From positions 62,001 to 126,000 of the forward strand of contig VCJN01001647.1 in NCBI GenBank assembly GCA_006384855.1: a DNA stretch of 64,000 nt, written 5' to 3'. Made by a program: the position numbers and the translations under genes. Source of the DNA: Tetraselmis striata. Lineage: Eukaryota; Chlorophyta; Chlorodendrophyceae; Chlorodendrales; Chlorodendraceae. Below are positions 15,616 to 62,897 of the stretch, one piece after another; within the stretch, counting starts at the first letter, position 1; each line of letters begins with the position of its first letter. The notes beneath the pieces were generated by a model. The model ran no database searches. It had not been told where the DNA came from and was given only the letters and a program-made list of their open reading frames with translations.

Positions 15616-18222
15616 TCACGCATGTCCCGCAGCAGCTTGCTCGGCATGTGTTGCGATGACCCAGCTGCCCGATCTGGAAGCCATCTGCAGCACCACCTCC
15701 TCCTTCAGCTCTTGCGCACCGGCCGCGCTCCCGGGTTTCCCTATCTTGGCCTCAGTGGCAGCGGCTTGGACGGTGCCTTGAGCACTGCGGCGCCTGAGGC
15801 ACCATACCGCTGCAGAGCCACCCATCAGCAACAGCAGTCCCGCCCCGGCGGCGATGAGACAAGTGAGCAGGTTGAAGTTGAAGCTGTCAGCCTCAAAGCG
15901 CACAGTGATCACATCACCGTGTTGCTCGGTGGGGTTGTCCAGCATCGGATAGTGCTCAGGTGCCATTGGCGCCTGCTGCACGCCGCGGCCCAGCACTGCC
16001 ACCGACTGAAGACCTGTCAGCCCGGACTTGCCCAGGTCAGCAGCAAACGCGCCTGATTCAATGGCTGCCTCGATTTTGCGGGACAGTGCCTTTGCGTGCG
16101 CTGGCGTCTCTCCCAAGATGCTGAGGCGGACGACGCAGCCAGGCTGTCCACCGGTGAGCTCCGCCAGATCAGCAGGGACAGGCTCTGCTTGCAGAAGTCC
16201 ACGGCGCTGGATGCCCCATGGCTGGCTTAGGCCAAACATGATGGAGGCTTCAGGGGAACCGAACGCCGTCTCGGCGGAGTTGGCCAGGATGGCCTCCTCC
16301 TGGACGGTGTCTAAGCCGCCGACAGGGCCATTGAGAACCAAGCTCAGGAGCGCCAGGTAGCCATTCTGAAGCTCCTCGTCCTCTGCTTCGTCATCCGCCG
16401 GCGGAGTCTGGCTGGCGAGCGCGGCAGCGGCAATGGGGTCCAGCGCCACACGAAGCCTGTCCTGCAATATGGCAGGTTGCTGTGCGTCCACATTCATGCT
16501 GCTCGCAGGCATGGGAGCCACTGGCTGGCGCGGCAAGGGCGGAGAGACCCCGGCAGACGGTGCCTCTGGCAGCGCAGGGCTCGCTGGCGCATCATAATTG
16601 TCATCATTAATTGGGTCTTCGCCGGCATAAGAGCACCACCAGCCACCGCAGGTACCGACGCAGTTGTCGACATTGTCCCGGCAAAAGGCTGTGCCCTCAG
16701 GAATGCCGTCGCACCGGCTCCAGCTGCAGTACTCACCCTCGCGAGGCTCTTCCCCAACTTCCATGTCGGAGGGGGCTTCTGACGAATCGGGCTTGCTGCC
16801 AGTGTTCGCCGGGTACTGCTCCAACATGTCATCACTTGGTGACCAGCTGCAGCTGCCTGTGCTGCTCTTGACCAGCAGGTCGTGGGGCTCCGCCACAACG
16901 AACATCAGCGCACCATCAGTTGTGAACGTCAGCCCCTCAGGAATGCGGCCTATATTCACTGAGCTCTGTTGTCCTGGCTCAAGGGTACCATCCCCGTCAA
17001 GCTTGAGCACACTCCTACTGCCTCGGGACAGCACGTAGACGCCGTCGTCGCCTGGGCGATAGTACATGCCAGCGAAGTCGCGCAGCTCCCTTGAGCGCTC
17101 CGCTCGCCTCAAGACACGCTCAGTTCTCCCGCTGCGCGGGTCCACCCGGTAGCCGGCGATTGGGTCCATCTCTTGCCCGACGATGAACTCCTCGCTAATA
17201 GGGTCCCAGGTAATGGATTCTAGCCCCTTGTTATTTGCCTGCCGAAAATCGTCGATCAAGAGGGTGCGGACGTGACGTGCGCGACGGTCCCATGGGTTGA
17301 GATCAAAGATGGTGATCTGCGACTTGCGCCGGCTTGGCCTGTCATTGTCGGAGCGCTCCTGGCTGACCGCAAAGCGATGGTCGTGCATCCAGGTAATTCC
17401 TGCGAGCCATCACCGAGCAGGGCGTGGTTGAGTTTGATGGTGTGCACCTGGCTGCTTTTGAGATTGCGGTACGCTTTGTCCCCCCCAGGGAACAACAAGA
17501 ATTCGCAGAAGCGGCGTCCCCCGATAACACGGAAAACCCCCCGAAAGAAATAGCGACTATGGACATGGGATGGTCGACAGTTTCCGGGACAGGACAGTAT
17601 GCAGCTAAAATAAGAATCAAGTGTCTGCCACAAGAGCTCGTCGAGTAGCGAATGGCAGCCATCGGGCCGCGCTTCCGTTAGCGTCACTCGTTCGACAGCT
17701 CGAACACAACACTGTAACTGTACGCTGCAGTGAGCAACACATCCGCAGCGGCGACACATCAGTATGGAACAGCGGCCCAGCGACCGCTGCGCTAAGTACA
17801 GCTACCGGATGCAAACATCGGGGGAAAGGGGGGCTCGAATCGGGCATGCATGGTTCGTGAAGGGCGTTTTCTTCGAACGGCCGCCTCCAAGAGGAGGCGG
17901 CGTGCGAAAGAGTGCAAATCCGGGGCGTCATACCTTCTGGGTCTTTGAATCGGAACCCGTCAAGGTTGGTCACACGCCGCAGGAGGTCGCCATCTATGTC
18001 GTATTCGAAGACACCCATCGGCTTCAGGGTCACCACCCAAATTGTGTTGGTCACCGGAGAATAGGTTAGACCGGAGGCCTCGGAGCGTATGCCACTAAGG
18101 CGAGTTTTCTTGCAGATGCGATCATAGTTCCTAAGGTCCCAGGGCGTACCGCCATGCACCGCACCGAGGATGGTCAAGGACGCCGCTGCAAGCAGCAGCG
18201 CCACTCGGACGAGACTAACCAT
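15616..18222 (-). CDS. Type-I membrane protein, SdiA-regulated/YjiK-like propeller (paralog A)
   Basis: Two exons, 18222-17934 and 17399-15616, joined by a phase-1 intron inside the codon for G of DPEG|ITW; 690 residues. Residues 1-25 are a signal peptide (MVSLVRVALLLAAASLTILG). About 26-300 form an SdiA-regulated/YjiK-like beta-propeller: SGLTYSPVTNTIWVV, VFEYDIDGDLLRRV, GLESITWDP, LRDFAGMYYRP and IPEGLTFTTDGAL. One six-Cys module follows (YCSWSRCDG...GGWWC). After it come a Pro-rich linker, an SEA-like region containing RRGLLQ and LTGG, a transmembrane helix near residue 610 (LLTCLIAAGAGLLLLMGG) and a short tail. It lacks the second Cys module and the Ser/Thr-rich tail of the other two paralogs. 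It is probably a cell-surface protein; ligand unknown. Confidence 0.87.
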
Positions 18223-20134
18223 GCGGGCGAGGCTCAATATCCACAACCTTGCCTAGAATAACGTAGAAAGTGGCTGCTGCAGCTATGCTGCGCTGCATGC
18301 CGGCACCCCTCTAGCGTTGGTTATTAAATGGTTTGTGGCAGACGTGCTGTTTTGAGGCGTTGTGCCGTGCGTGTGTCGTCTGCCGGTACCGGGTACGGAT
18401 AGGACGACGGCTGGCAGCCGACGGGCCGCCGCGGCACGGTACGTGTCCCAGTACGCGAGTGGTAAGGATCATTGTCAGATTATATCTCGTAGTAGTTACT
18501 CAAAGTAGACGGTATAAGGATGTGTACTCCTCGTAGTCACATGGGGCGCAGGCATTCCGCGCCGTATACCTGTAGTGCGCACCCCACGGGCCCATACCGC
18601 GTTACAGTCACATGCAGTTAGTTACCTTGCAGTTACGACTCGTACCATCTACGACGACTCAGCATCGTCACGTGGCCGACAATCTGGCGGAGCATTTTGC
18701 GTATGAAACTCGTATTGCACCTCATATCATTGCGTATAGAGACCGCCGTAAATATCAGCCCCAATCATCTGTAATCTATTTTGCGGTGGTAAACGACTCC
18801 GTCGTGATAAAATTATTACGTACAGCTGTCGCTTCCGCCATCAGCATCAGCAGAATGTGTTATCAGGTAAACAGGTACCATCAGTATATACGAGTACAGT
18901 AGGCAGCAGTTACAAACACAATAATATATCCAAACAATATTAATATCTAATATATCACCATTGTACTTGCGAGCAGTAGTCATCGCGGGGCGTACAGTAG
19001 GTATCGGTACCGGTGCAGCCATCACTTGGCGCCCCGGGGTCGTTCGGGCCGGGGACGCCGGCAGCGACGCACGGTGTCGACGACGGCGATATCAGGGTTG
19101 CCAGTCGCTAAATCCACCGCTGTACTCGCTCCCGGGCTGAGCAGGCATGCTGACAATATTCTGCTCAATCTATCCAGAGTACTCATATCGGACCGCAATC
19201 ATCGCGAACTTTTTAACCTGGTTCGGCTACGCTACCAGGACAGCAGCAAGCCAGTAACCGACCGGCAGCGGGTAGTCTGATGAAGTGGGGCGAATACAGG
19301 TCGCCTGGAGTGGGCTCTGCACGATTGCTGCTACAGTCCTGTACAGATATATAATTGTCGATATGTACGTGTGTCCCATATACGTGTGTGTATTACAAAG
19401 CACTTGAGGCAGCAGCACTGCCACTGCCAGCCCCTACCTTGCACACTATATAGCTCACCCATTCATAGCGACAGTTATATCTATGTATAACTGTATGAAT
19501 ATATATATATATATATATATTTGTATGCTACATGGTTGAAACAATGCCATTTATGTATTTGTAGCTATCTCAATTTTATTTGTCTTGCGGGGGCACAGCT
19601 GCACACAGGGCATTTATTGGTGCCCCTGTGTGCAAGCTGACAATACACGCAACGAAAAGCAAGCGTTAGATCGAGAATTCTGCCTAGAATATATATGTGC
19701 CTGCCAGGAAAGGAAAGCCGGTGCTATCATTCAATGCTCTCTTCTTGCGCACACCTCCTGGGGATGGTGCATACTGTCAGAAATGCAGCTTGTCAGCCTC
19801 CACGAGGATTTACATGGGCACGCCTACGACTGGAGATGCTTGTAGTTAGTTTTGTATTCACATGCCAACAGTAGGGACTCCAAAGTGTGCATCTTAATTG
19901 AGCCATTCTGGCAGCTGCAGAGTGAATTTAATGTGGATGTAGGGGGTTGCTGTGGCAGCTAGGGGCGCGCGTATTGGGCACCACAACTGCCGCCAGCAAG
20001 TGAATAGTATGCCGAATCACAGCTTTATCGTGTCATCAATTAGCACGACTATTACGCGACAACCTACAATTAATGATAATCAGGTGGTCCCCACTTGATC
20101 GATTGCTGTCTGAAACGCCAGGCTGTTGCTGATC
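18223..20134. other. Intergenic between tandem paralogs A and B
   Basis: Mostly AT-rich; it should contain the promoter of paralog A and the 3' flank of paralog B. It includes a (TA)n tract at about 19496-19520 and GGTACC-type sequence near 18380 and 19010. ORFs are short and show no domain. Confidence 0.5.
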
Positions 20135-23100
20135 TCAGGCAGTGCCATCGCCGCTCAGCATGCTGGTCTGGCGGGAATGACCCGGGGTCCCCATTGGCGT
20201 GGTGGGTGCCGTCTCAAGCGCTGTGAGCAGCTCGCAGGTGGATGAAGCGTCACTGGGACTGCGGCGGTGGCCAGGCCCGGCAGCTTTCGCGGTGGGGGAG
20301 ATGCGTGCTGGGCGGGGCGGCCGCGCAGCTGTTGGCGTCATCTGCAGCACCGTCTCGTCCTTCAGCTGCTGAGCTCCCGCCACACTGCTTGCCTGAGAAA
20401 CGTCAGCTGCTGAGTAGGCAGCCTTGCCAGCGGCACGGCGCTTGATGCACCACACCGCTGCAGAGACGCAGATGAGCAGGAGCAGCCCCGCCAAGGCGGC
20501 CACGGTGCCAGTGAGCAGATCGACGGCAAAGCTGCTGGATTTGCCATCCAGAAGCACGATGATCACATCGCCCTGCTCCTCGTTGGGGTTGTCCAGCATC
20601 GGGAAGTGCTGCGGTGCCATCGGCGCCTGCTGCACGCCGCTGCCCAGCACTGCCACCGACTGCAGCTCCGCCAGGCCCGACTCGCCCAGGTGGGCGGCGA
20701 ACACGCCTGACTCTATGGCTGCTTCAAGGTTGCGCACCAAAGGAGGCGGCGTGCTCCTTTGTGACTCCCAGCATGCTGAGACGGATGACGGAGGCAGGCT
20801 TGCCGCCGGTGATCTCACTCACATCAGCTGGAATTATGGGCTCTGCCTGCAGGAGTCCCCGCTGCGGGAGAGTGAATCTCAATGGCTGGTCCAAGCGGAA
20901 CAGGGCGGAGGCGTCCGAGGAGCCAAAGGTTGTATCGGCTGCGTTCGCAAGGATAGCCTCCTCCTCGGCGATGCTGAAGCCACTGCTCGGACCGGCGAGC
21001 ACCAAGCTCATGAGAGCCAGGTACCCATTCTGAAGCTCCTCATCCGCAACCTCCTCAGAATGTGTCTGGCTGGCCAGCGCGGCAGCGACAATGGGGTCCA
21101 TCGCTTCCTCAGGCGTTGCGGCAGGTGTTGCACTGGGCTCCGTCTGCTCAGGCTCCTGGGCGGCAGCCTTGTGGAGGTCATGCTCCTGGAAAAGCTCCTC
21201 ATACCGCTCCATATCGACAGGTTCCATACGGGCCCAGCTGCTTGTGTCTCTGGGGCACCATGTACCCATGCAGGCGACGCACTCGGCGACACCCGAGCGG
21301 CACCAGTCGTTGCCCTGCGCCTCCCCATTGCAGCCATCCCAGTTGCAGTAGCCATCCTCGCCATCATTATTGCCGTCGGCAAACCATGCGGGTCTTGGAG
21401 GAGGGGGAGGGGGGAAGGGCGGCGGCGGACTGGACGGCCCCACGTAGTTGTCCTTTGTGATTGGCGGAATACCGGTATGGACGGAACACCACATGCCCTC
21501 ACAGACGTCCACGCAATTGTCGACAGAGTCGCGGCAAAACGCGGTGCCCTGCGCCCCGCCGTTGCAGTCGTCCCAGTTGCAGTACCCCTCGGTGCGCGGG
21601 GGGCCAACCAAGGCGCCGCTGGAGCTTTCTGCATCGCCTCCGACGTTGTTCCGATTGTCGCTGATGTAGTCGTACAGGTTAGTCATGCCCGGGCGCCAGT
21701 CGCAGGTGCCGATGCTGCTCTTGATAAGCAGCTCGTTGGGCTCCCCGACCGTGATGATCAACGCGCCGTCCGCTGTGAATGTGAGCCCCTCTGGCATGCG
21801 GCCAGACACTTCCGTCTCTTGCCCAGGGATTCGGTGCCCGTCCAGATCGAGCTTGAACACAGTGTCGGTAGGCTCGGAGAGCACGTAGATGCCAGTGTCA
21901 CCTGGGCGGTAGTACATGCCAGCAAAGTCGCGCAGCTCGCGGTTGCGGTCGGCATCCTGGAGAACTTCGATGGCACTGCCAGTGCGCGGGTTGATGCGCC
22001 AGCCTGTCATGGGATTCATCTCCTGGCCCGCGATAAACTCTTGGTTGTCTGGGTCCCAGGTGATGGACTCAAGCCCTTGGTTGTTCACCTGGCGGAAGTT
22101 GTCAATCAAAAGCGTCCGCACGTGCCGTGCGCGCCGCTCCCACGGCGGAAGGTCGAAGATCGTGATCTGGGACTTGCGGTTGCGCGGTGTGTCGCTGTTC
22201 GACCGCTCCTGGCTCACCGCAAATCGGTAATCGTGCATCCAGGTGATCCCTGCAACAACCGCAAGACAAGGCTTGCCTACTCAGGGTGCGGCGCCCTGTT
22301 TGTTGCTGGTGAACGGAGTCGGATAAACGAAGCAGGCAATAGGCTGTCGGGCAGATGCGCGCCACCCCACGGGACTGCGTTCCCACGCCAGCTGTGGCGA
22401 GCTGGGGACAGCGCTCGCCTATAGGGGATATACGCGAAATCCAAGGCGCTCGTCATGGCAAGGTGCGTGCGGATACGGCGGTAGCGGCAGGGCGGATTTC
22501 ATAGGCCGCTATTGGCGGCGGCTGTTCGGCGTCGATTATTTACCGACTAACAAGTAAGAACGATGTAACGACCATACCGGTACCGCCGAGGGGCGGATTC
22601 GCGTAGTCGCGACGCGCCGGGCCAGCCCGCGGGGCTGCACCGCAAGACAAGGCAGGCGGCAAGGGCGCGGCCTACAAGGCGCGAATATGCCTTTCCCGAC
22701 TCACTGTCATGACCCAGATAGAAGGCCCGTGGAGGGGGCTCGGAGGAAGCAGCCCCCCCCCCCCCCCCCCCCCCCCCCAACGGGGGGCCAGCATGCTAAC
22801 CGAACTTGTGGGGATAAAGTACTGGCAATGTCGCTATGGGGGGGGGGGGACAGTTGTAAGTTTGTAACGCCGTAGTTGAATAAGTGGGCGGGCGGAGCGG
22901 TCGCCTTGCTCACCTTCCGGGTCTTGGAAGCGAATGTTCCCGGTGTCAACACGGCGCAGGAATTCGCCGTTGATGTCATACTCATACAGTCCCATCGGCA
23001 CTCGAGCCACCACCCAGATGGTGTTGGTCACCGGGGAATACGTCACGCCGGAGGCGTCCCTTCGGATGCCGCGAAGGCGAGTTTTCGTGCAGGTGCGGTC

Positions 23101-23199
23101 ATAGTCGCGAAGGTCCCACGGCACGCTAAGCACCGCGAAAGGGAGCACTAGCCCTACAACCATCGCAACGAAAACTGACATTTGAGCAGCGCCTGGCAT
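20135..23199 (-). CDS. SdiA-regulated/YjiK-like propeller membrane protein, frameshifted (paralog B)
   Basis: Two exons, 23199-22914 and 22249-20135, with the same phase-1 intron as paralogs A and C. Start 23199 matches the paralogs' leader length; 23181 is the alternative. It has a signal peptide, then the propeller (SGVTYSPVTNTIWVV, GLESITWDPDNQEF, MPEGLTFTADGAL). Two six-Cys modules follow (YCNWDDCNG and YCNWDGCNG types) separated by a Pro-rich linker. Then come an SEA-like region, a transmembrane helix (LLTGTVAALAGLLLLICV) and a Ser/Thr/Pro tail with GTPGHSRQTS. The frame breaks once: upstream coding ends ...GVTKEHAASFGAQP-stop, and downstream coding resumes as LVRNLEAAIESG in another frame. 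One extra base in the AAA at 20739-20741 (plus strand) explains this. About 799 residues if the break is a sequencing error, otherwise a pseudogene. Confidence 0.8.
20737..20745 (-). other. Single-base frameshift in paralog B
   Basis: Both frames aligned to paralogs A and C are collinear on either side of this point with no missing residues. That fits one inserted base in a short homopolymer (T3 on the coding strand) rather than an intron; no splice sites are present. Confidence 0.8.
22753..22778. repeat. Poly(C) run, 26 bases, in paralog B intron
   Basis: It lies within intron 22250-22913 of the minus-strand gene, so the transcript would carry a G26 run. A second G run of 12 bases follows near 22840. 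Confidence 0.9.
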
Positions 23200-34526: not shown

Positions 34527-35710
34527 TTACCGGTGAAAACCAGTCACTGTGAGATTAGCAGCGGAACGCTGCGGTGCCAGGGAGCCGAAGAAGTAGCGGG
34601 CCCCAGCGGAGTCCAGGATGCCTGGCACGATGTAATTGAGGACCACGCCGCTGCCCACTTTCCAGCCGCCAAGCCAGCGAATCGTAGGCATAGGGACGCC
34701 CGTGTCCGAGGCCGCGGACGCCCCGCCACTGCGAAGGCTGTGCGACGACCAGCAGAAACCAGCAGGCGGGGTAGCGTCAACTGCCAAGGCAGCGGCAGTT
34801 ACCCATTCGGAGACAGTAGCCGCGGTCCACGTGCCGGGATCATCATTAGGGAGCTGCCAAAACCGAGTAGCACCGGGCAGCACGTGATCGCGGCAGCTGA
34901 CGAAGAACTCCAAAAGCTCCGCGATTTCGGGGTGCGCCTCGCGGGAAATTTGCAGCACCGGACGAGGCGCCCCGGAAGGCTTGCCCTTAAGTACTCGACG
35001 GTACAGCGTAATGCTGCGGGAATCAACCGCCAAATCGCGCACGCCGCACCCCGTACTAGTACCCGCGCGGTGACAAAAAAGGAAATTGACCGCGGTAACG
35101 AGCAGGGCACGGAATGTGGGCAGGTCGCACGCGATGGACCTGTGAGAAACCAGCCGCTGCGCACGCCGAACAAAGGCGAGGGCGACGTCCGCAGGCGAGG
35201 CACCCGGTAGTCCGGGGCTTCCAGCACCTGCTGAGCCAGCTCCCAACCGCGCATCGCCTGGTTGACGAAAGGCCCAAGCGCCGGCGGCTCCTTGAAATTA
35301 TCGGTGAAAAGGCGTTGATCGCTGAAAGGTAGGGTCCAAAGGCACCAGCCTTGTTGCGGCCACGTGCCGCAACCCAAGAGATGTACCGAACGATGAGCGG
35401 CGGATCCGCCGTGTCCGGCAGTCTCCCATTTTGCGCGCATAACTCGCAGAATATGTTGAATTCAGATCCGTAAGACTGCACGGTACGTTCCGCGCGCGAA
35501 GACATCAAGAAATTCGCGGCACGGCGCCCAACCTCGTCGTCGCCGAGTAACCGCAGTAGCCCAGGTCGCATAATCGCTGCCCATGGTGCAGATGGTACGT
35601 TCGATTTCAACCCGTACCGCACAGCCGGGTGTTGTCTGCTGTGAGCATCTGTACGGGAGATCTGAAAAGCGTCCGCGGAAACGTCCAAGGTAGCAGCAGC
35701 AGCACTTAAC
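34527..35710 (-). pseudogene. Tyrosine recombinase of young PAT element, frame-broken
   Basis: The N-terminal core-binding part (AANFLMSSRAERTVQSYGSE, LIVRYISWVA, YLSAINAF) is in one frame. A middle part (FKEPPALGPFVNQAMRGWEL) is in a second frame. The catalytic part is in a third: SPADVALAFVRRAQ, SSHSLRSGGASAA (the H-x-x-R box), and IRWLGGWKVGSGVVLNYI, whose Tyr is the likely nucleophile. Breaks lie near 35310, at a T4 run on the coding strand, and near 35230. All expected regions are present and no large deletion is seen. This enzyme class replaces the DDE integrase of other LTR-like elements. Confidence 0.88.
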
Positions 35711-37700
35711 GCCCCGTAACCGGCGCGTCGCGACCGGTAGAAGAAGGACGGAAGGGAAGGCGGAAGAGCATCACGCTCCAGGGCGGCGGCCCGACGCCCG
35801 CGCGGCGCCCGAGCAGCCCGGCAAAGAACAGATCGCGCGAAGGAGGGTAGTGCAGTACCTCGGTAGCCATCTCGTGTAGCTGCTGGAGCCAAGGGCGGCC
35901 GTGCCAGGCCGGGGCGACCACGGTCGCCGCGGCCCCCGATTGCTGCAGCTTTAGCACCAGATCGTCCAGCAGCTGCCAAGGGGGATTGCACCAGTTCACT
36001 TCGGCGCGCCACGTGGCGTCCGACTGGGCCAAGGAGTCCACCGCCTCGGTACCTGGGACCGTCCACCGGGAGTTGTACCGAGGTAACAAGGCGTTCTCCA
36101 TAGCTGCGAATCGGTCGACCGTATGTGTTATCCAGATGCGATCGACGTACCGGAATATACGAGGATTGATCATCCAATCGGAAAAGTCCTTCTCCCGCGA
36201 AAGCTTGTCCGCCCATGCGTTCGCCGCAGACCGAATGTACCGTACTCGTAAACGAATATCGTGTACATCCAGCAAATACCATAGCTTGCGAAGTTCCGCC
36301 ATAAGTACCGGTGACCGAGTAGTCAAATTGGACAGGATATGCACCACCGCCTGATTGTCCTCGTAAAAAAGTACTCGGCGCCCCATCAGCCGTGGCAAAA
36401 ATGACTGTATGGCGAGACGTACCGCTTTGAGCTCCTTGTACGTTATATGACGTCGACGATCCTCCTCGTACCAATCGTGCGTGCCTCCGTAGTTTCGCAC
36501 AGTACCGCACCCCAGCCGTACTGGCTGGAGTCCGTGTGCAGATAGGCTGTCTCCACCGGGCGCAGAATCGGTGCGCCGTTGTGGCGCGTGGGAACATCGC
36601 GCCACCACTCCAAATCGCGAATGAGCTGACGCGTCAGAACGACCTTGCCGCTGGGAGAGGAGCATCGGCCCAGGACGGTGTGCGCCTCGCGGAGGTAGAA
36701 ACGTGCCGGAGGAATCGCGAGGCAGAGGAACTGGCCCTGCCCGGCGAGAGACGCAAGGAGTTTGGCCGGCGCGTGGCGGCGGCGGCGCGCAGCGATGCAC
36801 AGGAGGTCGCGGGCCAGGTTGGAGAGCCGACGCAGTTTCGCCGCTGGGGCGCGGAACTGCATAGTGACAAGGTCCAAGTCCAGGCCTAAGTGCTGCAGCT
36901 GCTGGGTGGGCTCGGGGTGCGCCTTGGTGGGGTGCTTGGCCAGGCGCAGGCGCCCCCAGACTCGCTCGACCTCGGCCCGTAGGCGTAGAGCCAGCTGGCG
37001 CGACGGTGCCAGAAACAGGAAGTCGTCGATGAACGGTAGGAGGCAAACGCCGCGCGCCTTGCGGCGACGCAAGCGTCGACGGAAGGGCCGGCCGTAGCTG
37101 CTGTAGGTCGCGAAGTCTGGTTGACGCAGGTAGCGCACCATGACCGCCATCAGAGTGCAGAAGTAGTAAGGGCTTAGCGACCAACCCATGGGGAGGGCCG
37201 CGAAGCGCCACAGGGTGCCACGTACGTTGATTGTAAAGAAGTCGCGGACGTCCTCCCGCAAGCCCAGGGCGTAGTAGCCGCCCTGCAGGTCGAAGGAAAA
37301 CGCCCAGTCGCCGCGTTTCGCCAGGTACCGCAGGCGACGCAGAGTTTCGAATCGCATGGAATAGACCGCGCAGTAAGAGTTTAGATGGCGCAGGTCTATT
37401 ACAAGGCGCCACTGGTTGCAGCCCGGCTTTGGTACTAGGAAGACTCGCGACACGTAGTGCTCGCGCACGCCAGGTTCTAGCCGACTGTTACTAGTCGCTG
37501 GCTCTCCCGCTCCCACCACTCGAGCTGCTGAGGCGTAGCGTCATGTAGAGAGACGCCCCGGTGGAAAGGCGTGGGCGCCGCGCCAGAGAAAGGTAGCGGC
37601 ACTCCCTCGCGAACCCACCGGAGCACGCGCCCGCTCGCCCCGATTCGCCGCCACTCCCGCCAATTCTGCCGCACGCGATGGCGCAGAAACGTGGAGGGGC
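35706..37700 (-). pseudogene. Reverse transcriptase-RNase H-methyltransferase polyprotein, frame-broken
   Basis: The reading begins near 37690 with NWREWRRIGASGRVLRW and continues, after a frame break at about 37488, with HYVSRVFLVPKPGCNQWRLV. The YxDD box is in LLPFIDDFLFLAP. RNase H follows: HTDSSQYGWGAV, a frame break near 36500, ITYKELKAVRLA, and FYEDNQAVVHILSN. Then comes the DIRS-specific DAM-like methyltransferase domain: NPRIFRYVDRIW, YNSRWTVPGTEAVDSL and CNPPWQLLDDLVLKLQQSG, with NPPW as the methyltransferase motif. It ends at 35706, slightly overlapping the recombinase start. The domain order is standard for DIRS elements. The function of the methyltransferase domain in these elements is not established. 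Confidence 0.92.
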
Positions 37701-37732
37701 GTGGTAACGAAGCGGAACGGCGGGCCGCACCG

Positions 37733-38672
37733 TCAAGCCTTGCCCTTGCCCTTGCCCTTGTCGGCGTCGTCGGCTGTGGGGCGGAAGTCTGGGCGTGGGC
37801 GGCGTCCGGAGGGCCGGCGCCGTCGCGCTCTGGATGGTGGCTCGTCGTCGTTGTCCTCCTCCTCGTTGGGGTCTGGTCCCACGCCGAAGCGCTGTTGTAC
37901 GGCTGCCTTTGCCGCCGCCGTGACGCTGTACTCGGCCTCGCGGCGCAAAAGCTCGTCGCTGAGCTGCGCCACTGCTTCCGAACCATAGTCCGCGAAACCG
38001 GGCTTGAGGAGGCTGCGGCGAACCACCTGTGCGACTGTCTTTGTCCGCGCATCCGCATCATTCGACGCGTTGAGGAGGATAAACGCCAGGAAGTCGCGCC
38101 GGTGTTTATTTGAGGCGTCGTAGGCCGCCACGCCCGCTTCAAGGAGGCGAAGGTCCTCCTCACCAGGGGGCTGCGCCGCGCTTGCCACTCTCTTAATCGA
38201 CGCGAGCGCCTCGCAGAGAGCCGCGTGGGCCACCGCATCGTAGAAGCCAAAGCAGTACAGAGAGCGGTGCTGATCCAACGCGCGATGAGCTGGCGGTGCG
38301 TCTCGTCAGATGAGGTCGTACAGTTGGGGAATCGGAGAGAGGCCGGGACTGGGCTGGACGGAAAAGCCGGGGCCAATTAAATGAGCCCACTCCTCCCAGA
38401 CTAAGGAAGGGGCAGCGGCACTAGGGCCACCGCGCTGGGGCTGGGGCACGGAAACCTGCTCTGCGCGAGCCGGTGCGTCGTGCTGGGAGCTCGCCGCGGC
38501 AGCGCTACTAGCGGGCGGGCGCGCGGGGCTCGGTAGGAGTAGAACCACTAGGCCGCTGAAGGTCACTTCGTAGGGCTTCCATAAGCTCCGTAAGCCCCGC
38601 GAAACCGGCCTCCAGCGCGGCGATGCGGTCTTCGGCTAGGCCACTAGGGGCGTCACCGGAGTTGTCAGGCAT
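37733..38672 (-). pseudogene. Gag of young PAT element, frame-broken
   Basis: It starts with MPDNSGDAPSGL and a short coiled-coil-like helix (IAALEAGFAGLTELMEAL). A frame break near 38525 leads to an Ala/Pro-rich linker and WEEWAHLIGPGFSVQ. An in-frame TGA follows near 38308. The same frame then continues with HRSLYCFGFYDAVAHAALCE, a helical capsid-like region typical of DIRS Gag, and ends in a basic KGKGKGKA tail. No zinc knuckle is present. Confidence 0.7.
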
Positions 38673-47826: not shown

Positions 47827-50800
47827 ATGGCTTTTCTGGCCCGGGCCACGGTGCTCCTTGCGACGGCTGCCCTGGCCCTGCCTCCCGCGGTGCTTGCCTC
47901 ACCTTGGGACCTGCGAGATTACGATCGTGTCTGCGAGGAGACTCGCCTCAGTCGCATCCGCTCCGATGCATCTGGCGTTACATACTCCCCGGTGACCAAC
48001 ACTCTGTGGGTCGTTGCCCGCAAACCGATGGGGCTGTTTGAGTACGACATAGATGGCGACTATCTGCGATACGTCGAGGTTGGCAATATGCGCTTCAAGG
48101 ATCCAGAAGGTGCGCCGCCCTGCCACTGCCCGCCGCTCCGCCCCTTTCCTCGTCCCCAAGATGAAATGCAGTCGCCCTCCTCGGATCGCCTACGCACGTG
48201 TGATCTACAACCCGGAAGCTTGCTACGCATGCAACCGTGAGTATTCGGCGAGCTTAGGTATTCCCATCGTTGCAAGCGACCTGTCACAGTGTCACATCGC
48301 TATGCACAGCTGACATACCGCGCCGCTTTATATCGGTCAATGCGGCGGCCGTTTGATCTGAAATTGTCGCCTCACGTTCGGCATAGGGCGTATCGCTTCC
48401 ACGATGTTCTCAAATGCAAGTCGCGTTCGGGGCTACATGCCGTGTTCCTCCAGCCTGTAACGCCGGCTTGAAATCCCCCCCCCCCCCCCCCCCCCCCCCC
48501 CCCACACGACGGAAGATACTGGTACGAGCTCGCGTTTCCGCCCCAGGCCAGGCGCCAGCTGGAATCGAACCGACGCGCGCGGCTATAACCACGAAGCGCG
48601 ATTGCCGAGTAGTGACGATGGGCGAGTACAGCGCGAGTACTCGTACGCGCGTTCGCGCGCGGGGCAGGCTTGGCAGGCGGCGCGCGCGGAATTAATAACA
48701 CTCACTGTGTTGCCGCTTTGCTTGTGCCGTCCTTTTCCTGCCTTTACATGCAGGGATTACCTGGATGTACGAGCATCGCTTCGCGGTAAGCCAGGAGCGC
48801 TCCGACAATGACAAGCCAGGCAGGCGAAAATCTCAGATCACCATCTTTGACATCAAGCCCTGGGAGCGCCACCCCCGCCACGTCCGCACCCTCCTGGTCG
48901 ATGACTTCCGCCAGTCCAACAACAAGGGGCTGGAGGCCATCACCTGGGACCCGCACAGCGAGGAGTTCATCGTCGGCCAGGAGATGGACCCGCTGGCCAG
49001 CTACCGGGTGGACCCGCGCAGTGGGAGGGCCAAGCAGGTGATGAGGCGAGCGGAGCGCTCAAGGGAGCTGCGCGACTTTGCGGGCATGTACTACCGCCCG
49101 CGCGACGACGGCGCCTACGTGCTGTCCCGAGGCTCCAGGAGTGTGCTCAAGCTGGACGAGGACGGGCGCCCCGTTCCAGGACAAGAGAGCAAGGTGGTGG
49201 TGGGCCGCATCCCCGAGGGGCTGACGTTCTCCTCCGACGGCGCGCTGATGTTCGTCGTGGCCGAGCCCAACCACCTGCTGGTCAAGAGCAGCATCGGGAC
49301 CTGCAGCTGGCGCCCCGACAGGGACATCCTCCGGCAGTACCTGGGCGACGGCGGCTCCAGCCTTAACCCTGATTCAGAGTCGGAAACCCCGTCCGAGTCG
49401 CCCTCCGAGTCGGACTCCGAGGAGGTGGTCTACGGCCCGCTGCGCACGGAGGGCTACTGCAACTTCAACGGATGCAAAGACGGCGCCCAGGGAAGCGAGT
49501 GGTGCCTCGCCACCATCGACAACTGCGTGGCCGGCTGCAACGGCTGGTGGTGCTCCAACATCCCTGCCGTGCCGCCCATCAACCAGGCCAACTACATCGC
49601 CCCGCCCAGCCCTCCGCCGCCGGGGGCGCCGCCAGCCCCGCCCGCACCGCCGAGCCCCCCCGCGCCTGGCGCTCCTCTGCCCTGGTACGAGCAGGGGGAG
49701 GAGAATGGCTACTGCAACTGGGACGGCTGCAACGGCGAGGAGCAGGGGCAGATATGGTGCCGCCGGAGCGTGGGCAACTGCGTCGCCTGCATGGGGACCT
49801 GGTGCGCCAAGGAGCCCAGCAGCGACGGCACAGATCCGGTTGACCCCGAGCGCTACGACGAGCTCTACCCCGACACCGCCGCAGACACTGAGGGCTCCGA
49901 CGCCGGCGCGGCGGACCTCGCGGCGCAGGCGGGCGAGGACGCAGACGAGGCGCTGCCGAATGGCTACCAGGCGCAGGTGAGCGTGATGATCAGCGGCCGC
50001 GTCGGCGGCTTTGACGACGCCGAGCAGGGCGCCATGCTCAAGGTCGCCGCCCGCGCGACGTACGGCTCGCCCGACGCCGACGTCATGCTGAGCATGGCCC
50101 AGCTGGGCGACGGGCGCCGCCGCGCGCTGCTGAACGGAGAGCCCATGCCCGCGGCGCTGTCGGAGCTCACCGGCGGCAAGCCCGCCACCGTTGTCCGCCT
50201 CAGCGCACTGGGCGTGACCGCAGACCACGCGGACAACCTGGAGCGCAGCATCAGGGAAGCCATTGAGTCGGGCGAATTCGCCCGTGAGCTCAATGTGGCC
50301 GGGCTGGCGGACGTTGGCTCGGTGGCGGTGCTGGGCAGCGGCGTGCAGCGGGCGGCCATGCCCGCGGAGGACTTCCCGAGGGTGGACAACCCGGTGGAGC
50401 AGGGCGATGTGATCGTGGTGTACCTTGAGCCGGAGGGCGGCAACCTCACCCTGCTCACCGGCGCCGTCATCGCCCTCGCGAGCGTGCTCGCGCTGCTCAT
50501 CGGCGGGGCGGCCGTCATGTGCTGCCTCAGGCGCCGCGCGGCTTGCGACTCAGCCTGCGCGGCGCCGCACGCGGCTTCCGCTGGCGGCGCGGCGGGCGCG
50601 CGGGAGCTGAAGCAGGACGTGGTGCTGCAGATGACGCCCCCGCCGGCGCGCCCCCTGCGCCCGCCCCGTGCCTCCGCCAAAGAGGGCGCCGCGCCCGGCC
50701 ACCGCCGCAACAACAGCGATGCTTCCTCCACCTGCGGCCTGCTGACCACGCTGGACTCGCCCCTGGGGACACCCGGCCACTCCCGCCAGACCAGCCTGTT

Positions 50801-50924
50801 CAACGGCGCCGACAGGCTGGCGGGCATCAGCGACAGCCTGGTGCTGGAATCCCCGCAGGCCGGGGAGGCCGCCGCTGTCCGCAGCCATGAGGTGCGGGTG
50901 TCCGTGGAGCAGGCGGATCAGTGA
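47827..50924 (+). CDS. Type-I membrane protein, SdiA-regulated/YjiK-like propeller (paralog C)
   Basis: Two exons, 47827-48109 and 48754-50924, joined in phase 1 inside DPEG|ITW; 817 residues. Residues 1-24 are a signal peptide ending AVLA. The propeller spans about 25-300: SGVTYSPVTNTLWVV, LFEYDIDGDYLRYV, GLEAITWDPHSEEFIVGQE, LRDFAGMYYRP and IPEGLTFSSDGALMFVVAE. Two six-Cys modules follow, near 329-361 and about 413-445 (YCNFNGC and YCNWDGC types), linked by PPSPPPPGAPPAPPAPPSPP, a likely hydroxyproline-glycosylated spacer. An SEA-like region with RRRALL and ELTGGKPATVVRLSALG comes next. A transmembrane helix lies at about 660-685 (LLTGAVIALASVLALLIGG), then a CCLRRR stop-transfer and a Ser/Thr/Pro cytosolic tail. 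TGTAA 203 nt after the stop fits a chlorophyte poly(A) signal. It is the most complete of the three paralogs. Function unknown. Confidence 0.92.
48475..48503. repeat. Poly(C) run, 29 bases, in paralog C intron
   Basis: It lies within intron 48110-48753 on the transcribed-sense strand, about 250 nt upstream of the acceptor. Confidence 0.9.
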
Positions 50925-55900: not shown

Positions 55901-56722
55901 ATGACCCATCTCTTCGTAAACCCATAACTGGCGACAAAGGGGCTGGGGCTGATGTGGAGGTGATACAAGCAATGCTGTGTGTACAGTGACGGACTGTCTA
56001 TCGCCAGCGCAAGGTCGCCAGCAGCATCCGCAGCTTATTGCTTGCCATTGTTGTCTACATGCCTGCCTGCCCGATCTTGTATGTATTACCCACCACGCCG
56101 CGTATGCGTACCGTTGCTGATGTATACCCGCCAACAGCCGGTAGGTACCCAGGCGCTGCTTGGTGGCATGTGCATCCCCATCTAATAAAATACGCAACTG
56201 TATGTGTCCCAGCATGGCGCCAGACAAATGGATGCATGATGCGACACCTTCCCCACCGGCAAGTAGGCAGCACACCGGGGCAGGTAGGGATGGATGCGCT
56301 GCGACGTACATATATTACAGTCTGCTGCAATTCCGGATGTTTCTCAGAGTCTGCTGCAAACGCGAAACCAACATGACCTGCCTGAATAGAACACGATTAA
56401 CAAAGAAGAAGAAAAAATGCCGCTGCGAAGTGGGGTCGCCCTCTGGGGCGGTGCAGCGAGAGCAAGCGCCCGCTGCTATAGGCAGGGCGGATAAATGGCG
56501 TGGGACACCACCTGTCTACTACTACGCTGGCATGGGCTTGCACCCAATGCGCGGAAAGAAGGAGGGGGGAGGAGGAGGGGGGGGGGGGGGGGTTTAAGGG
56601 CAGACGCCCTGCGTGATCAATGTTTGGCCCTTTTGTGGCGCTATATACAAGTTCGCTTAGATGGCCAAGAGCAATTGGCCACCTAGCCGAAGCAGGCATT
56701 GATTACTGTCTGCAGGTGCCCT

Positions 56723-59700
56723 TCAGGACTCGAGCTTCACATCCTCGACGTCCACAGGGACAGCAGCGCTGTCGCTGGCGCCTGGCGCCATCTTGTCAAA
56801 CGGACGCTTCTCGCCCCACGGGACGTCAGGCGAGGCCGGCGTCGCGAGCGGGTGATGCCAGTGGCGAATGGCGAACCAGAGCAGAAGGCCAAGGCTCGCG
56901 GTCGCCGCAAGCGCTGCGGCTGCGGCGGTGATGCCAACGTACACCGGCGCGTCCAGGGCACCCGCATGTTGGAAATGGTCTGCAAGGTCACATCACCAGG
57001 GGGGGGGGGGGGGGGGCACGCAGATCAGTGCGGTCACATGCCGTGGCGCGCTCTTGGGTTGGAGCTCGCATATGAGCGCACGGATTGGGGTAATTCAGCA
57101 GAGCGCTCGTGACAATTATCGCGACTGTTATCATAGAGCGTCTGCTCGAGAAAAGACACGCCTTGCTCCGAAACCATGTTATCCATGCTACAGCGAGTTC
57201 AATGGCAGAGGAGTATTGAGCAGCGCCAAACCTCTCTTAAAAACCTCCCCAAGGTTGGAAGCAAACTGATTGCTAACAAACATTTTCAGTGCTCCAAAAC
57301 CACGCACTGTGAGTTTGGAGGTCATACGGCAATTTACCCGTCGTCTTTTTGTGTGTGCCGCAACACAATGGACAATATATCACTTCAGCAAGCATATTGA
57401 GCCCCGTAATAGTACCCCAGCATGCCCCCATCCCTGGACCGCGTATCGAAAGAAATCGTGGAACAGGATGGGTTTCGAGCATACACACACGCGGTTGTGA
57501 ATAGGACTGGTTCATTGGGCGGTGAGTTGCCAAATTGAGACGAGAATCCGGTGCTGTTCACCGATTAATCACGACTGTTGGTAAGGAATGAGATCGTGGT
57601 AAACTTGGAGAGAAACACTTCATGGTGATTGAGATGTGGTTTTGGAGCAGCGTAGTCGCAATCTGCAAGATTGCGTTGCGGCTATGCGTCATCCAGTTAC
57701 GTGGATCAGCGTATGGATACTCAGGTATAGGCATTCTAGAGCCAATACACCCAACGTCAAGGGGTTATGAATGTGGTTTTGGAGCACAAGCGTTCCCCGA
57801 TGTACCCAAAGCAGTGCAGCGCGATGCGGCACGGCGGGGACGCGGGCCTCACCAAGATTCGAAACGAGCGCCGCCGGCACCTGTTGCGTGCTGGCGCCCA
57901 TGGACGAGGGCATGTATGTGACGCCGCCGGTACGGCTGAGTACCTCCCCAACCTCCTCTTGGCTGGTGCCCTCAAGCTTGGCCACCAGAGCAGCAGTGTC
58001 AGGCGTAGCCGCCACGATGATCACCTGACATCGTGGCAAAAGCAGCGCACCGCCTCCATCAGACCCCCATGGCGCCTCAAGCACCGCAACGCGCCTATCC
58101 GAGCAGCCGAGAGAATTATGGGATGTGCGTTACCGTGGACAGGTTGTCCTCCTCGAGTGTGACGGCGGCGGGGTCTTCCAGAATCAAGAGATTGCGTGGT
58201 GCGACACCTGATACCGCGAGAAGCGCCCGGTCAGTTTCCGCAAAGAGCTTATTGATGTTGGGCGGCATGTGCGTGTGCATGTGCGCGGTGGCTGAAGGAG
58301 GATAAGGAGGAGGTACACGGCCAACCTGTGAGCTCTGCCGCCGCAGCCAACAGCTGCGCTTGATCCACATCGCCGCGCAGCTCAGCCAGCTGAACCGAGA
58401 GGAAGACAACGGTCTCGCTGCCGGGGTCGCCCTGCTGGGCCAGCAGCGGGCTCCAGTCCAGCACGTCATCGTCATAGTCGGCGTCGTCCTCGATCAGGTT
58501 GGTATAAAGTAGCTCGGCACGCTCGATCGGCGCCGAATTCATAGCTCCCATCTGCGCGGAGGCCTCCGGATGGAAGGGGGCGCGCGTCATGTCCCACTGC
58601 AGCCCCTCCGCCTCCTCCGCCGTGATGCCGCTGACCGTGTCACCGCACATGGAGGTGTTGAACTGGGTCGGGGGGACCCACGGCGCCGGCTCTGCCTCAT
58701 CACGCGACTCCGCCTTGGTGCGCCGGGCCGGCGCTGGGTCGGCGATGTAGGTGGATGAGTCCACCGGCGCCCAGACGTCCTGCCGGATGGTCGGCGGGCA
58801 CCAAGTCCCGCCACAATGGAGGACACACTGCAGGCATTGGCAGAAATCATCAGTGTCATACACCTGCCCAGCTAGAAATCACAGAGCTACAACATTAAAC
58901 CAGATTACATCGTAATAGAAAATAGCGCGCAGGTGGCAATCGACTACAAACGGCGGGCCTGACCGGGTGTAAATTGCCTCCCTTCCAGCGGTGCAGTAAA
59001 CAGCCTGCAAGCAACCTGATTACTCGAGTTCTGGTACTACCAGGGCGATTAGTACCGATACGAGTACAGCACCTGCTGTGGATGTTGATATCTGCGGATG
59101 ATTATGATGGGGGGGTTACAGGTACTGGTATATCACTCATAATAGTATATCCGATCACGATGAAACACGATACGCAACCGGAAATCGGAAATAAAGAACG
59201 TGAGCCGGTCCATAATGACTGGGCGACACACTATAATTAAACACTGTCCTTGGTGCTTTCCGAAATCAATTTGCACCACGGCTGAAATGTTTCTGTCAGA
59301 TTTCTTTCAAGAAAGGGCAAACGCTCAAGACATTTTCTATTTGTATTTTATTTCTAGTCTATTACAATTGCCGCATTTGCATGCCAAGAGACTGCCGAGT
59401 TTAGCTCACACACTATTGTAGTGTTATTATAATTTTAGTATTATCACAATATGCGGTACTACGGACAAGCTAATGCGATGTCCGACATGCCAAGAGACTG
59501 CCGAGTTTAGCTCACACACTATTGTAGTGTTATTATAATTTTAGTATAATCACAATATGCGGTACTACGGACAAGCTAATGCAATGTCCGACATGCTAAG
59601 AGACTGGTGAGTTTAGCTGACACACTATTGTAGTGTTATTATAATTTTAGTATCATCACAATATGCGGTACTACGGACAAGCTAATGCAATGTCCAACAT

Positions 59701-62700
59701 GCTAAGAGACTGGTGAGTTTAGCTGACACACTATTGTAGTGTTATTATAATTTTAGTATCATCACAATATGCGGTACTACGGACAAGCTAATGCAATGTC
59801 CGACATGCTAAGAGACTGGTGAGTTTAGCTCACACACTATTGTAGTGTTATCATAATTTTAGTATCATCACAATATGCGGTACTACGGACAAGCTAATGC
59901 AATGTCCGACATGCTGCTATATTCACAGTGTGCATTACTGTACTTTGTCTGCTTATTGCTCATATCTCTTAACATGTAATATCTACGACTGAATCGATAT
60001 GTCCTTAACATTGGCCCAATCTCGCATTGGCAGGGGCGCGCCAGTACATTAACAGCAAGAACGACATTATGACGTAATGCACGGCACGGCACGGCGGCAG
60101 CATTACAGGCAGGAGAGCATCAGCCGCAAACCTGCTCGGGGTTGATGCGGCAGTACATCTCGCCCTCTTGCAGCCCGTTGCAGCCGTTCCAGTTGCAGTA
60201 GCCGCCTGGAGTATTGGAGTGGTACCACGGCGCCGGGTCGGTGTAGGTGGAGGAGTTGACAGGCTGCCAGTCGGCCCGCTCGGCGTCCGGGGGGCACCAT
60301 GTCCCGCCGCATCCCATGACACACTGCGATGGGGAGCACATGTCGCAAGATGCTTATGGCCTTACTTTGCAACGGGCGAAGAAGGGCCACGTGCCATAGT
60401 GGCAATAGGTGGCCATCGGTCGCGCACCTGCTCAGCACCCTGACGGCAGTACATGTCACCCTCCTGCCGCCCGTTGCAGCCGTTCCAGTTGCAGTAGCCA
60501 TCCAGGGTATTGGTATGGTACCACGGCGCCGCGGGAGGGGGTGGCGGCGGCGGCGGCTGTGGCGGCGGCGGCGATGGGGCATTGAAGGCTTGCAGCAGCT
60601 GCACGCTGGTGGTGAGGCACTGCGCAGGAGGGCAGGTCCAAGCGCCGCTGTCCAGCATCTCCTCAGCTTCCTCCTTCAGCGCTAGCGCCTCTGACGAGTC
60701 CTCCGAGCTCCTCCGCTTGCCTCCGCTGCTGCTCTCTTGGTCTTCCTCGGCCCTGGTGTGAAACATCTCGAAGTGGCGGTCGTAGCAGACCTCACGCGCT
60801 GCAGTCTCGAGCTTCCGCGCCGCCCTCACTCTGGCCTCCTCCGCTTCGCGAGCTTCCTCGTCCGCGACCCACTCCGAGAGCTCCGCCTTGCATGCGGTCG
60901 CGAAGACGTGCAGACAGGCTTTGCAGGTCGGCCTGCGTCACAGGTGCACAGTGATTATCCAGCCGAGCATGCAATTTCCGATATGCACCATGCTACGAGC
61001 AATATATTCACAGTCGCCACTCGGCACGGCGACGTCGACGACTGTGCCAACTGGCCACGCAGATGAGCGAAGAGAGACTTGTCGGCAGTTCGAACTATCA
61101 GGTGAATTGCGACGCATCCCGTGGTCAAACAGTTAATATACTTTTCATGGGTTATATAGCAACTAAACGTATACAGACCACATTCAACTGCGAGGGATGC
61201 GTGTGTGGGTGTGGGTGTAGGTGCGCGTGCGCGTGTGCGTGGGCATGTAATCCCACTTGCCGGCTATTCGTGCTAACAATGCTTGCTTGCTACACCTCCT
61301 CTGTGACGAAGCCTCTTACCTGTGCCACGGCAGCTTGCGCCTGCCGTCCTCATCGGCATGGCACCCGCTGTACCGGTCGCGGTCGTCATGCCCGCAGCTC
61401 AAGCTCTTGCAGTAGCGGTTTCCCGCCCAGTAGTCCCAGCGCCGGCAGCGCGCGTTCTCGGGCCGGTACCAGCAGGTGCCGAGGCAGAGCCAGTCACTGT
61501 CCGTGTACACAAACTCGTACGCCCCTGTGCCACGCGAGCCGCGCGGTTGGGGGGGGGGGGGGTGTCAGGCACGAAGCTACAATTCCCCGCTGCCAGCCAG
61601 CGAGTAACCGGCGACGACGCACAATCTCGGTCAGGTGCTGACGTGGCGACGAGGTAAAGTGTCAGACGGCTGTACAAAAAGGGTGGCCGGAGCGCCGATG
61701 CGGCATTCGACTGTGTTCCATCCGTATTTCGACATCAGCAGGTGCTTCGACGGCAGTCGCGAAGCTTACCGGCCAGAGCCAGCTCCTCCCAGGTGGGCTT
61801 CCTGACGTCTTTCCAGCCGCCCCCCCTCGCGGGCTTGGAGTTCTTGTTGTCCGAGCACCTCTGTGTACATGCGCGGGCGCCAAGGGCAACGTCAGTGCAC
61901 AGAGAGTTCGCGACCGCCAACGTCGACGCGGTGGTCGTGGTTACGCTACCCGTAGCGACTCCTCTTGCGACCGCTGATGTCAGCATGCTTCCTATCTGTA
62001 GTTTGGAGATCGTCACATCGTCGAGGACGCGCATCGCTTCTGTATTGTACGTGAATTCACCGCCGATTCACTCACGTACCGGTGCCGACGTCAGCAGGGC
62101 AAACACCATCTCACAATAAGCGCATCACAATATATTCGAGCTCACAGTGCTGATAATAGTCGCTTTGGAACAACCTGGAACCCTGCTCATAAGGACTGCT
62201 AATAAGGACTGCTCGTATGGATGGGTCATCCGTACACGCAGCGCACAATTTTCGGATTAGTCGTACTCTTTAAGCCGCAACTCATATTGTAAATCAGTAC
62301 TTCAATGATATCGTACGCTCTTCCTACGATATGTTGCATTGAAGTACTGATTTACAATATGAGTTGCGGCTTAAAGACTTAGCTCTACAGGTAAGCTACA
62401 CGCCGGCCGCTGTTAAGGGCTGCTTGTGCCAGTCATGTTATCACGAGCGACGACGTGGCCGTACAGGTAGTGAAGCCTTTCTTGCTGATCATCTTGCGGT
62501 TTAATTTTCTGATCATGGTAAACATCTTACTAGTAAACATCTATTAATTGAGAGAAGGCGTTTACAGTTCCCCCTCCCCCCCCACGCCAGCCCGCGGCAT
62601 GCTTATGTCTTAAGATGTCGAGATATGTGGGCCGGGGCGGGCGCGACAGGCCGACAGGGCGGGTGGGGGTGACAGAAAGCCGACAATGCCATCTCGTCTG

Positions 62701-62897
62701 CCATCTGAATTACTAGCAAGCGAGCTCTACTAGCAACATACCTCCAGCAGGCACGGCTTGGGGCATGGACCGCGAGCGCGGTGGGCGGTGGTGCACCAAC
62801 GGCGACCCATGCCGTTGCACGTTCCCCCCGCCACGACGGTCGCGAGGCACAGCACAGAGCACATTGCGGCTGCAACGGCGCAGCGAAGTGCCATCAT
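56723..62897 (-). CDS. Cys-rich type-I membrane protein with CNW modules (gene D)
   Basis: Nine exons with consistent phases: 62897-62742, 61860-61770, 61524-61320, 60932-60428, 60323-60132, 58827-58326, 58207-58134, 58024-57853 and 56979-56723. The model gives 717 residues. Signal peptide: MMALRCAVAAAMCSVLCLAT. A Cys/Trp-rich N-terminal region follows (GMGRRWC, DSDWLCLGTCWYRP, YWAGNRYCKSLSCG), then an E/A/R-rich helical segment. A Pro run comes next, then two CNW modules (YCNWNGCNGRQEG and YCNWNGCNGLQEG types) whose last four cysteines sit at the start of the next exon (CVMGCGGTWC, CVLHCGGTWC). An SEA-like region (ETVVFLSVQLAELRGDVD) leads to a transmembrane helix near 650-672 and a 40-residue tail. 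It shares the Cys module with paralogs A-C but lacks the propeller. Function unknown. Confidence 0.87.
59381..59915. repeat. 106-bp satellite in gene D intron
   Basis: Five full copies begin at 59381, 59487, 59593, 59699 and 59805, plus a few bases of a sixth. Each has AAGAGACTG, TTTAGCT, ACACACTATTGTAGTGTTAT and ATGCGGTACTACGGACAAGC. The unit contains the palindrome ACACTATTGTAGTGT. It lies in the intron between exons 5 and 6. Confidence 0.95.
62268..62376. repeat. Perfect hairpin with 40-bp arms in gene D intron 1
   Basis: 62268-62307 is the exact reverse complement of 62337-62376. Inside, ATATCGTA (62308-62315) pairs with TACGATAT (62325-62332), leaving a 9-base loop and a 4-base bulge. 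Intron 1 of gene D spans 62741-61861, so the structure would form in the pre-mRNA. It could be a small-RNA precursor or a short fold-back element. Confidence 0.9.

What the first reader, a model, noticed from the sequence alone, without database searches (positions are those of the whole stretch)
15616..62897. A six-cysteine 'CNW' module repeated seven times in four surface-protein genes
Genes A, B, C and D contain one, two, two and two copies of a module of about 33 residues. The pattern is YCNWxGCNGxxxGxxWC, then about 6-8 residues, then CVxxCxGxWC. Cysteine and Trp/Gly spacing is kept while the rest varies. I do not recognise it as a named family. It may be an undescribed algal extracellular domain, and it recurs next to Pro-rich spacers and transmembrane helices.
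Basis: partly seen in the sequence, partly recalled or inferred. Interest (0 to 1): 0.75.

Follow-up and report, generated by a model that had tools for sequence, protein, structure and literature searches.

The report
Undescribed green-algal cysteine-rich surface module
A small six-cysteine protein building block that the domain libraries searched here do not know is repeated in surface proteins across this green alga's genome, including a sugar-polymer-cutting enzyme, which suggests it helps proteins grip the alga's cell covering.

Summary
Genes A, B, C and D carry 1, 2, 2 and 2 copies of a six-cysteine module of about 33 residues; in D both copies are split by introns. The genome is a green alga (rubisco small subunit). 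No credible Pfam or PDB match was found, and scans of prokaryotic and viral contigs gave only chance hits.

New context: A, B and C are type I membrane proteins with an SdiA-regulated (PF06977) propeller, then the modules, a predicted alpha/beta region and a membrane helix. Four of 11 propeller genes read lack the module, so it is optional. Elsewhere it sits between a Pro/Thr linker and a CBM_1 in an LPMO_10 enzyme, in phosphoesterase-type proteins, and as eight tandem copies. This fits an extracellular binding module, most likely for cell-covering polysaccharide. Binding is inferred, not shown; other algae and transcription could not be tested.

The parts
17932..18222 (-). Gene A exon 1: hydrophobic N-terminus (signal-like) and first part of SdiA-regulated propeller
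   Evidence: PF06977 39.1 bits on 17923-18222; hydropathy; junction GAAG|GT
15616..17400 (-). Gene A exon 2: propeller, one CNW module, C-terminal region, hydrophobic helix (about 15805-15861), short tail
   Evidence: PF06977 52.4 bits; hydropathy
16633..16731 (-). CNW module, gene A
22912..23181 (-). Gene B exon 1: signal-like N-terminus and start of propeller
20726..22250 (-). Gene B exon 2: propeller and two CNW modules; the frame ends early relative to A and C
   Evidence: PF06977 45.1 bits; alignment A4
20135..20734 (-). Gene B remainder in another frame: C-terminal region, hydrophobic helix (about 20444-20500), tail
21486..21584 (-). CNW module 1, gene B
21255..21350 (-). CNW module 2, gene B
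47827..48111 (+). Gene C exon 1: signal-like N-terminus and start of propeller
48753..50924 (+). Gene C exon 2: propeller, two CNW modules with Pro-rich spacer, predicted alpha/beta region (about 49965-50351), hydrophobic helix (about 50466-50522), long tail
   Evidence: PF06977 61 bits; secondary structure from a low-confidence model; hydropathy
49455..49553 (+). CNW module 1, gene C
49710..49805 (+). CNW module 2, gene C
56723..62897 (-). Gene D, multi-exon membrane protein (exon borders by eye): Cys-rich N-terminal region, Pro-rich spacer, two intron-split CNW modules, hydrophobic helix near 56867-56923
   Evidence: paralogue L009
60428..60496 (-). CNW module 1 of gene D, first half
60294..60323 (-). 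CNW module 1 of gene D, second half
60132..60200 (-). CNW module 2 of gene D, first half
58798..58827 (-). CNW module 2 of gene D, second half, after a 1.3-kb intron that holds a 106-bp tandem array

Best explanation
The CNW module is a small extracellular domain, probably held by three disulfides: about [YF]C-x-W-xx-C-xG-xx-QG-xx-WC-x6-C-V-xx-C-xG-x-WC, with six cysteines and four mostly aromatic positions. This green alga uses it as a plug-in between other domains of secreted and type I membrane proteins. Its most likely job is to bind the cell covering (polysaccharide, or else glycoprotein). In genes A-C it would dock an SdiA-regulated propeller ectodomain, receptor-like in layout, to that layer above the membrane helix. 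In the LPMO_10 protein it would hold the enzyme on its substrate beside a CBM_1. Shown here: the module, its spread, its domain company, its optional insertion, and purifying selection. Inferred: the disulfides, ligand binding, and that the ligand is carbohydrate.
For: Seven copies in the window. In 35 copies that I chose, the six Cys positions hold C in 35, 35, 34, 35, 33 and 35, and four positions are aromatic in 33, 28, 30 and 34 of 35 (truncated and near-duplicate copies left out, so these figures lean high). PF06977 propeller in A, B, C. In 7 of 11 propeller genes read (allele pairs merged; a partial match on C923 not read) one or two modules follow the propeller, and 4 of 11 lack them. 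One gene has LPMO_10 (46.1 bits), a Pro/Thr linker, CNW and CBM_1 (23.6 bits, cut-off 20.6), with a candidate first exon that would put HGYL after a signal peptide (the N-terminal His rule of LPMOs is recalled). Metallophos domain in L055 (27.6 bits, cut-off 21.5). Eight tandem copies in L083. dN/dS 0.10-0.54 on module codons.
Against: Of 15 module genes whose frames I scanned with Pfam (A-D and 11 other loci) only 1 has a carbohydrate-active domain. Of 4 LPMO_10 loci read, out of 10 matches in the genome, 3 show no CNW module. A genome-wide CBM_1 search found nothing at E 0.001 (it rang in no control either), so the CBM_1 rests. A role of SdiA-regulated propellers in sugar binding is not known to me. 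In A-B-C pairs dN/dS is higher on the module than on the propeller. The structure model is not firm: best pLDDT 73.7, the other four 45-48, no fold match. No binding, disulfide or expression data exist here.
Confidence: 0.5

Rival explanations
1. Protein-protein contact module: CNW joins surface proteins to each other or to partner cells, like EGF or granulin-type repeats, and carbohydrate is not the ligand.
For: Most hosts are receptor-like or of unknown function; a divergent copy follows a vWA-like domain in L100 (by eye); module number per gene varies from 1 to 8.
Against: The LPMO_10 plus CBM_1 context and the aromatic positions suit a sugar binder better, but do not exclude this.
Confidence: 0.27
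2. Structural spacer: disulfide-bonded beads that stiffen Pro-rich stalks or cross-link the covering, with no specific ligand.
For: Tandem use with Pro/Ser/Thr-rich linkers (L019, L082, L083); L062 lacks the module yet keeps the propeller, a following region and a hydrophobic helix.
Against: Four aromatic positions and one Gly are kept in 28-34 of 35 chosen copies, more than a spacer needs. Module codons are under purifying selection, though in A-B-C less than the propeller.
Confidence: 0.15
3. A diverged member of a known family (CBM_10, ShKT, EGF, CBM_1, a chitin-binding type) that the libraries miss.
For: CNW at the start recalls CBM_10 and the C-x3-C end recalls ShKT (both from memory); the model shows three short helices.
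Against: No CBM_10, ShKT, CBM_1 or chitin-binding model matched any of 20 members at E up to 10, and one EGF-type model matched 1 of 20 at E 0.065; no PDB profile or fold match. HMMER filters and the short length limit these tests.
Confidence: 0.15

Closest known systems
Small disulfide-type carbohydrate-binding modules (CBM_1 PF00734, CBM_10 PF02013)
   Same: Short, Cys-rich, aromatic-rich; one CNW copy lies on a Pro/Thr linker beside an LPMO and a CBM_1
   Different: 0 of 20 copies match either Pfam model; mostly in proteins without a recognised enzyme domain; binding untested
SdiA-regulated propeller family PF06977 (bacterial YjiK; CarP of Pseudomonas)
   Same: Genes A-C match over the curated cut-off. 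CarP is listed as a Ca2+-regulated beta-propeller protein with SdiA-regulated homologues (PMC10574481, passages seen); YjiK recalled
   Different: Here in a eukaryote, split by an intron, with signal-like N-terminus, CNW modules and a membrane helix; about 11 genes
Lytic polysaccharide monooxygenases LPMO_10 (PF03067)
   Same: L081 matches over the cut-off and has a candidate N-terminal His exon
   Different: C-terminal CNW, CBM_1 and a basic tail that the pattern searches found only in this gene and in CNW-array genes

Membership tests
SdiA-regulated (PF06977), genes A-C | Match over the curated cut-off of 21 bits | tested here: met
   52.4, 45.1 and 61.0 bits for exon 2 of A, B, C; 39.1 for A exon 1
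SdiA-regulated (PF06977), genes A-C | Beta-propeller fold | tested here: inconclusive
   Model of C is strand-rich there, but mean pLDDT is 36
CBM_10 (PF02013) | Match of the Pfam model | tested here: not met
   0 of 20 members at E up to 10. Attempts to gather CBM_10 sequences for a profile comparison found none in 2 and in 274 genomes, and no control rang either
CBM_1 (PF00734) | Match of the Pfam model to the CNW module | tested here: not met
   CBM_1 matches residues 334-362 of L081, after the module; 0 of 20 members
Carbohydrate-binding module in general | Physically linked to a carbohydrate-active enzyme | tested here: met
   In one gene, LPMO_10-CNW-CBM_1, of 15 module genes scanned
Carbohydrate-binding module in general | Demonstrated carbohydrate binding | not testable with these tools
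   needs protein and ligand
ShKT / EGF-like | Match of the Pfam model | tested here: not met
   No ShKT match; one EGF_STAB1-2 hit at E 0.065 in 1 of 20 members
Any fold in the PDB | Structural match | tested here: inconclusive

The most novel reading that the evidence does not exclude
CNW is an undescribed, mobile carbohydrate-binding domain family of green algae that fixes receptors, phosphatases and an LPMO to the cell covering; and genes A-C stand for a new eukaryotic class of surface receptors that combine a bacterial-type SdiA-regulated propeller with wall-binding modules and a membrane helix.
Probability: 0.35. Interest if true: 0.65.

Novelty: new variant of a known kind. Interest (0 to 1): 0.5.

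Why it matters
How scaly or thecate green algae attach proteins to their unusual covering is, as far as I know, little studied. A review says that 2-keto sugar acids of scales also occur in the theca of Tetraselmis (PMC10762512, passages seen); that this genome is Tetraselmis is only my guess from size and GC. A module that recurs in receptor-like proteins and in a polysaccharide-cutting enzyme would be a handle on covering proteins and a candidate new binding family, testable with one recombinant domain.

Tried and rejected
Known-family readings gave nothing for the module: Pfam, PDB sequence, PDB fold, and NCBIfam for 5 proteins (gene C exon 2, L081, L083, L019, L009). Bacterial or viral origin of the module: degenerate-peptide scans matched 9 and 57 stretches, none confirmed; a fixed-spacing DNA pattern gave 4 matches in genome contigs and 2 in viral contigs, in frames of 10 to 73 residues that do not hold the module by eye. 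These scans catch close relatives only. Comparison with CBM_10 by profile failed because no CBM_10 member was found to align. My impression by eye that the eight-module protein starts with a WSC domain is not supported: no Pfam match. The basic C-terminal tail as a general sorting signal was dropped: a looser pattern hit 8 places against 9 for its reversed control; six of the 8 have the real tail, in CNW-array genes or the LPMO-CNW gene. The model of gene C is too poor to use except as a hint. Paper searches: the motif strings gave 0 papers; the others listed nothing that describes the module as far as the listings show. Of papers I saw passages of three only: PMC10762512, PMC10574481, PMC12028343.
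Full report
WHAT IS THERE. The window lies in a genome of 224 Mb in 2,903 contigs, at C1332:62001-126000. The one rubisco small subunit match found is closest in the PDB to 8q04, 1ir2 and 7jfo, which I recall as green-algal; so the genome is a chlorophyte. Tetraselmis is my guess from size and GC, not tested. A relaxed six-cysteine pattern finds five whole copies in genes A, B and C and none in 60 random windows. Gene D has two more, each split by a phase-0 intron just before the fourth cysteine.

THE FOUR GENES. Exon 1 of A, B and C gives a hydrophobic N-terminus and then the first part of an SdiA-regulated domain; exon 2 gives the rest (PF06977 at 52.4, 45.1 and 61.0 bits against a cut-off of 21). 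After the propeller come one (A) or two (B, C) CNW modules with Pro-rich spacers in B and C. In C a region follows whose predicted secondary structure alternates strands and helices (residues 405-533 of exon 2, low confidence, a hint only). Then come a hydrophobic helix and a tail. In B the last part lies in another frame than expected from A and C; lesion, assembly error or short intron are open. D is a different protein: a Cys-rich N-terminal part, a Pro-rich spacer, two CNW modules, and a hydrophobic helix before a stop near 56723 (exon borders by eye). A paralogue of D with one module and a hydrophobic helix near its end lies at C925:49.8 kb (L009). C925 also carries copies of the C and D stretches (C: 100% over 129 residues) and looks like the other haplotype.

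SPREAD IN THE GENOME. A translated search with the gene C stretch gave 67 matches at E up to 1, the weaker of them often in Pro-rich DNA without the cysteines; a consensus query gave 58. An iterated profile over the window and loci L001-L083 gave 184 matches, 57 distinct sequences, intron-cut pieces of D included; many loci overlap or are alleles. Merging evident allele pairs by eye, I read modules in 22 genes: A-D, one more on C925, and ones on C678, C751, C2388 (two), C835, C2425, C2810, C1482, C759, C1269, C2737, C1722/C2177, C1693, C2764, C119, C2054 and C1568. Further matches on C2764 and C2177 may be more genes or alleles; two divergent ones lie on C1663 and C2354. In 35 copies that I chose, the six cysteines are kept in 33 to 35; truncated copies, near-duplicates and the divergent ones were left out, so this leans high. 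As DNA, C-N-W-xx-C-N occurs 17 times in the genome against 5 for the reversed control; several of the 17 are AT-rich and not modules. Of 11 SdiA-regulated genes read (allele pairs merged; a partial match on C923 not read), 7 carry CNW modules and 4 do not in the stretch held (C1839, C1371/C2492, C751:46 kb, C2502). L062, one of the four, goes from propeller to a further region and a hydrophobic helix without a module. So the module is an optional insert.

OTHER HOST PROTEINS. L081 (C2737) has LPMO_10 at 46.1 bits, a Pro/Thr-rich linker, one CNW module and CBM_1 at 23.6 bits (cut-off 20.6), and an upstream candidate exon that would put HGYL after a signal peptide. A genome search with CBM_1 did not reach E 0.001 anywhere, nor in any control, so that neighbour is weaker than the LPMO. 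L055 has a calcineurin-like phosphoesterase domain (27.6 bits, cut-off 21.5). L038 has a purple acid phosphatase N-terminal match below its cut-off (23.3 against 30). L083 has eight copies, L019 four, L082 four followed by a very long Pro-Ala-Pro-Thr tract. Of 10 LPMO_10 matches in the genome I read 4 (L081, L095, L096, L097); only L081 has CNW. L095 lies at a genome match of 48.8 bits to LPMO_10, though the scan of its frame listed only GH18 (94.8 bits) and a weak Defensin_3 match. In a FastTree of the modules the LPMO copy groups with the eight-copy protein (support 0.80), and the two share a C-terminal tail, so the LPMO may have gained module and tail together by exon shuffling (inference).

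SELECTION. In 7 pairs of propeller genes, one of them allelic, dN/dS is 0.12-0.40 on the propeller and 0.10-0.54 on the module (33 to 70 module codons, so rough). For A-C, A-B and B-C it is 0.54, 0.35 and 0.40 on the module, higher than on the propeller (0.23, 0.20, 0.27).

COMPARISON WITH KNOWN FAMILIES. Twenty copies against 24,736 Pfam models gave four families with one member each, best E 0.05, none credible. The profile against PDB sequences gave one match at E 0.15. The model of gene B copy 1, from the five window copies, has mean pLDDT 73.7 and the other four models 45-48; it shows three short helices. Foldseek found one match at E 5.1 and VIA-align none among 3 chains; for 43 residues this is weak evidence of novelty. 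In prokaryotic and viral contigs no relative was found. No collection of eukaryotic sequences was at hand, so whether other algae have it is unknown; I have a vague memory of similar motifs in other marine algae, which is not evidence.

MECHANISM. The evidence is domain company: propeller proteins with a membrane helix, an LPMO with a probable CBM_1, phosphoesterase-type proteins, Pro-rich stalks and tandem arrays. Where N- or C-termini were read, these are secretory or membrane proteins; several loci were read only in part. To this come the aromatic positions. The simplest account is a disulfide-held binding domain that docks these proteins to the cell covering. Carbohydrate as ligand is favoured by the LPMO gene and the aromatics but rests mainly on one gene. 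Protein binding or a plain spacer remain open.

VERDICT. A real module, spread over the genome of a green alga and unnamed in the libraries searched; ordinary in kind (a small Cys-rich accessory domain), new as a family as far as tested, with an interesting link to a bacterial-type propeller family.

Noticed in passing
L081:2175-3308(-), L083:476-2419(+), L058, L099: The LPMO-CNW-CBM_1 gene and CNW-array genes end in the same tail RKRARSKMLL (RKRAKSKMLLL in L099). The exact pattern hit 5 places and its reversed control none; a looser pattern shows a sixth. It may be a shared exon or a localisation tail.
   Followed up: partly
L095:483-2231(+); L096:476-1699(-): Other LPMO_10-matching genes carry a different Cys-rich repeat (CDA[ST]GxWPS...); in L095 it precedes a GH18 chitinase domain. 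A second candidate undescribed accessory module.
   Followed up: no
L061, L062, L063, L069, L071: SdiA-regulated (PF06977) propeller genes form a family of about 11 in this alga; of 14 control genomes only E. coli rang.
   Followed up: partly
20726-20760: Gene B changes frame here relative to its paralogues A and C.
   Followed up: no
59380-59915: A 106-bp unit repeated 5.1 times lies in the intron that splits CNW module 2 of gene D.
   Followed up: no
34799-38238 and 5679-9737: Minus-strand frames that look by eye like retroelement reverse transcriptase and integrase remains.
   Followed up: no
1242-2462: A 406-aa frame with a 120-bp tandem repeat coding Thr/Pro/Glu-rich units.
   Followed up: no
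L098:1318-2031(-): The one rubisco small subunit match found runs on, in the same open frame, into a Gly-Tyr-Pro-rich C-terminal stretch (GYGPPPP repeats).
   Followed up: no
L100 (C1663:15301-17000), minus strand: A divergent CNW-like module follows a vWA-like domain (by eye).
   Followed up: no
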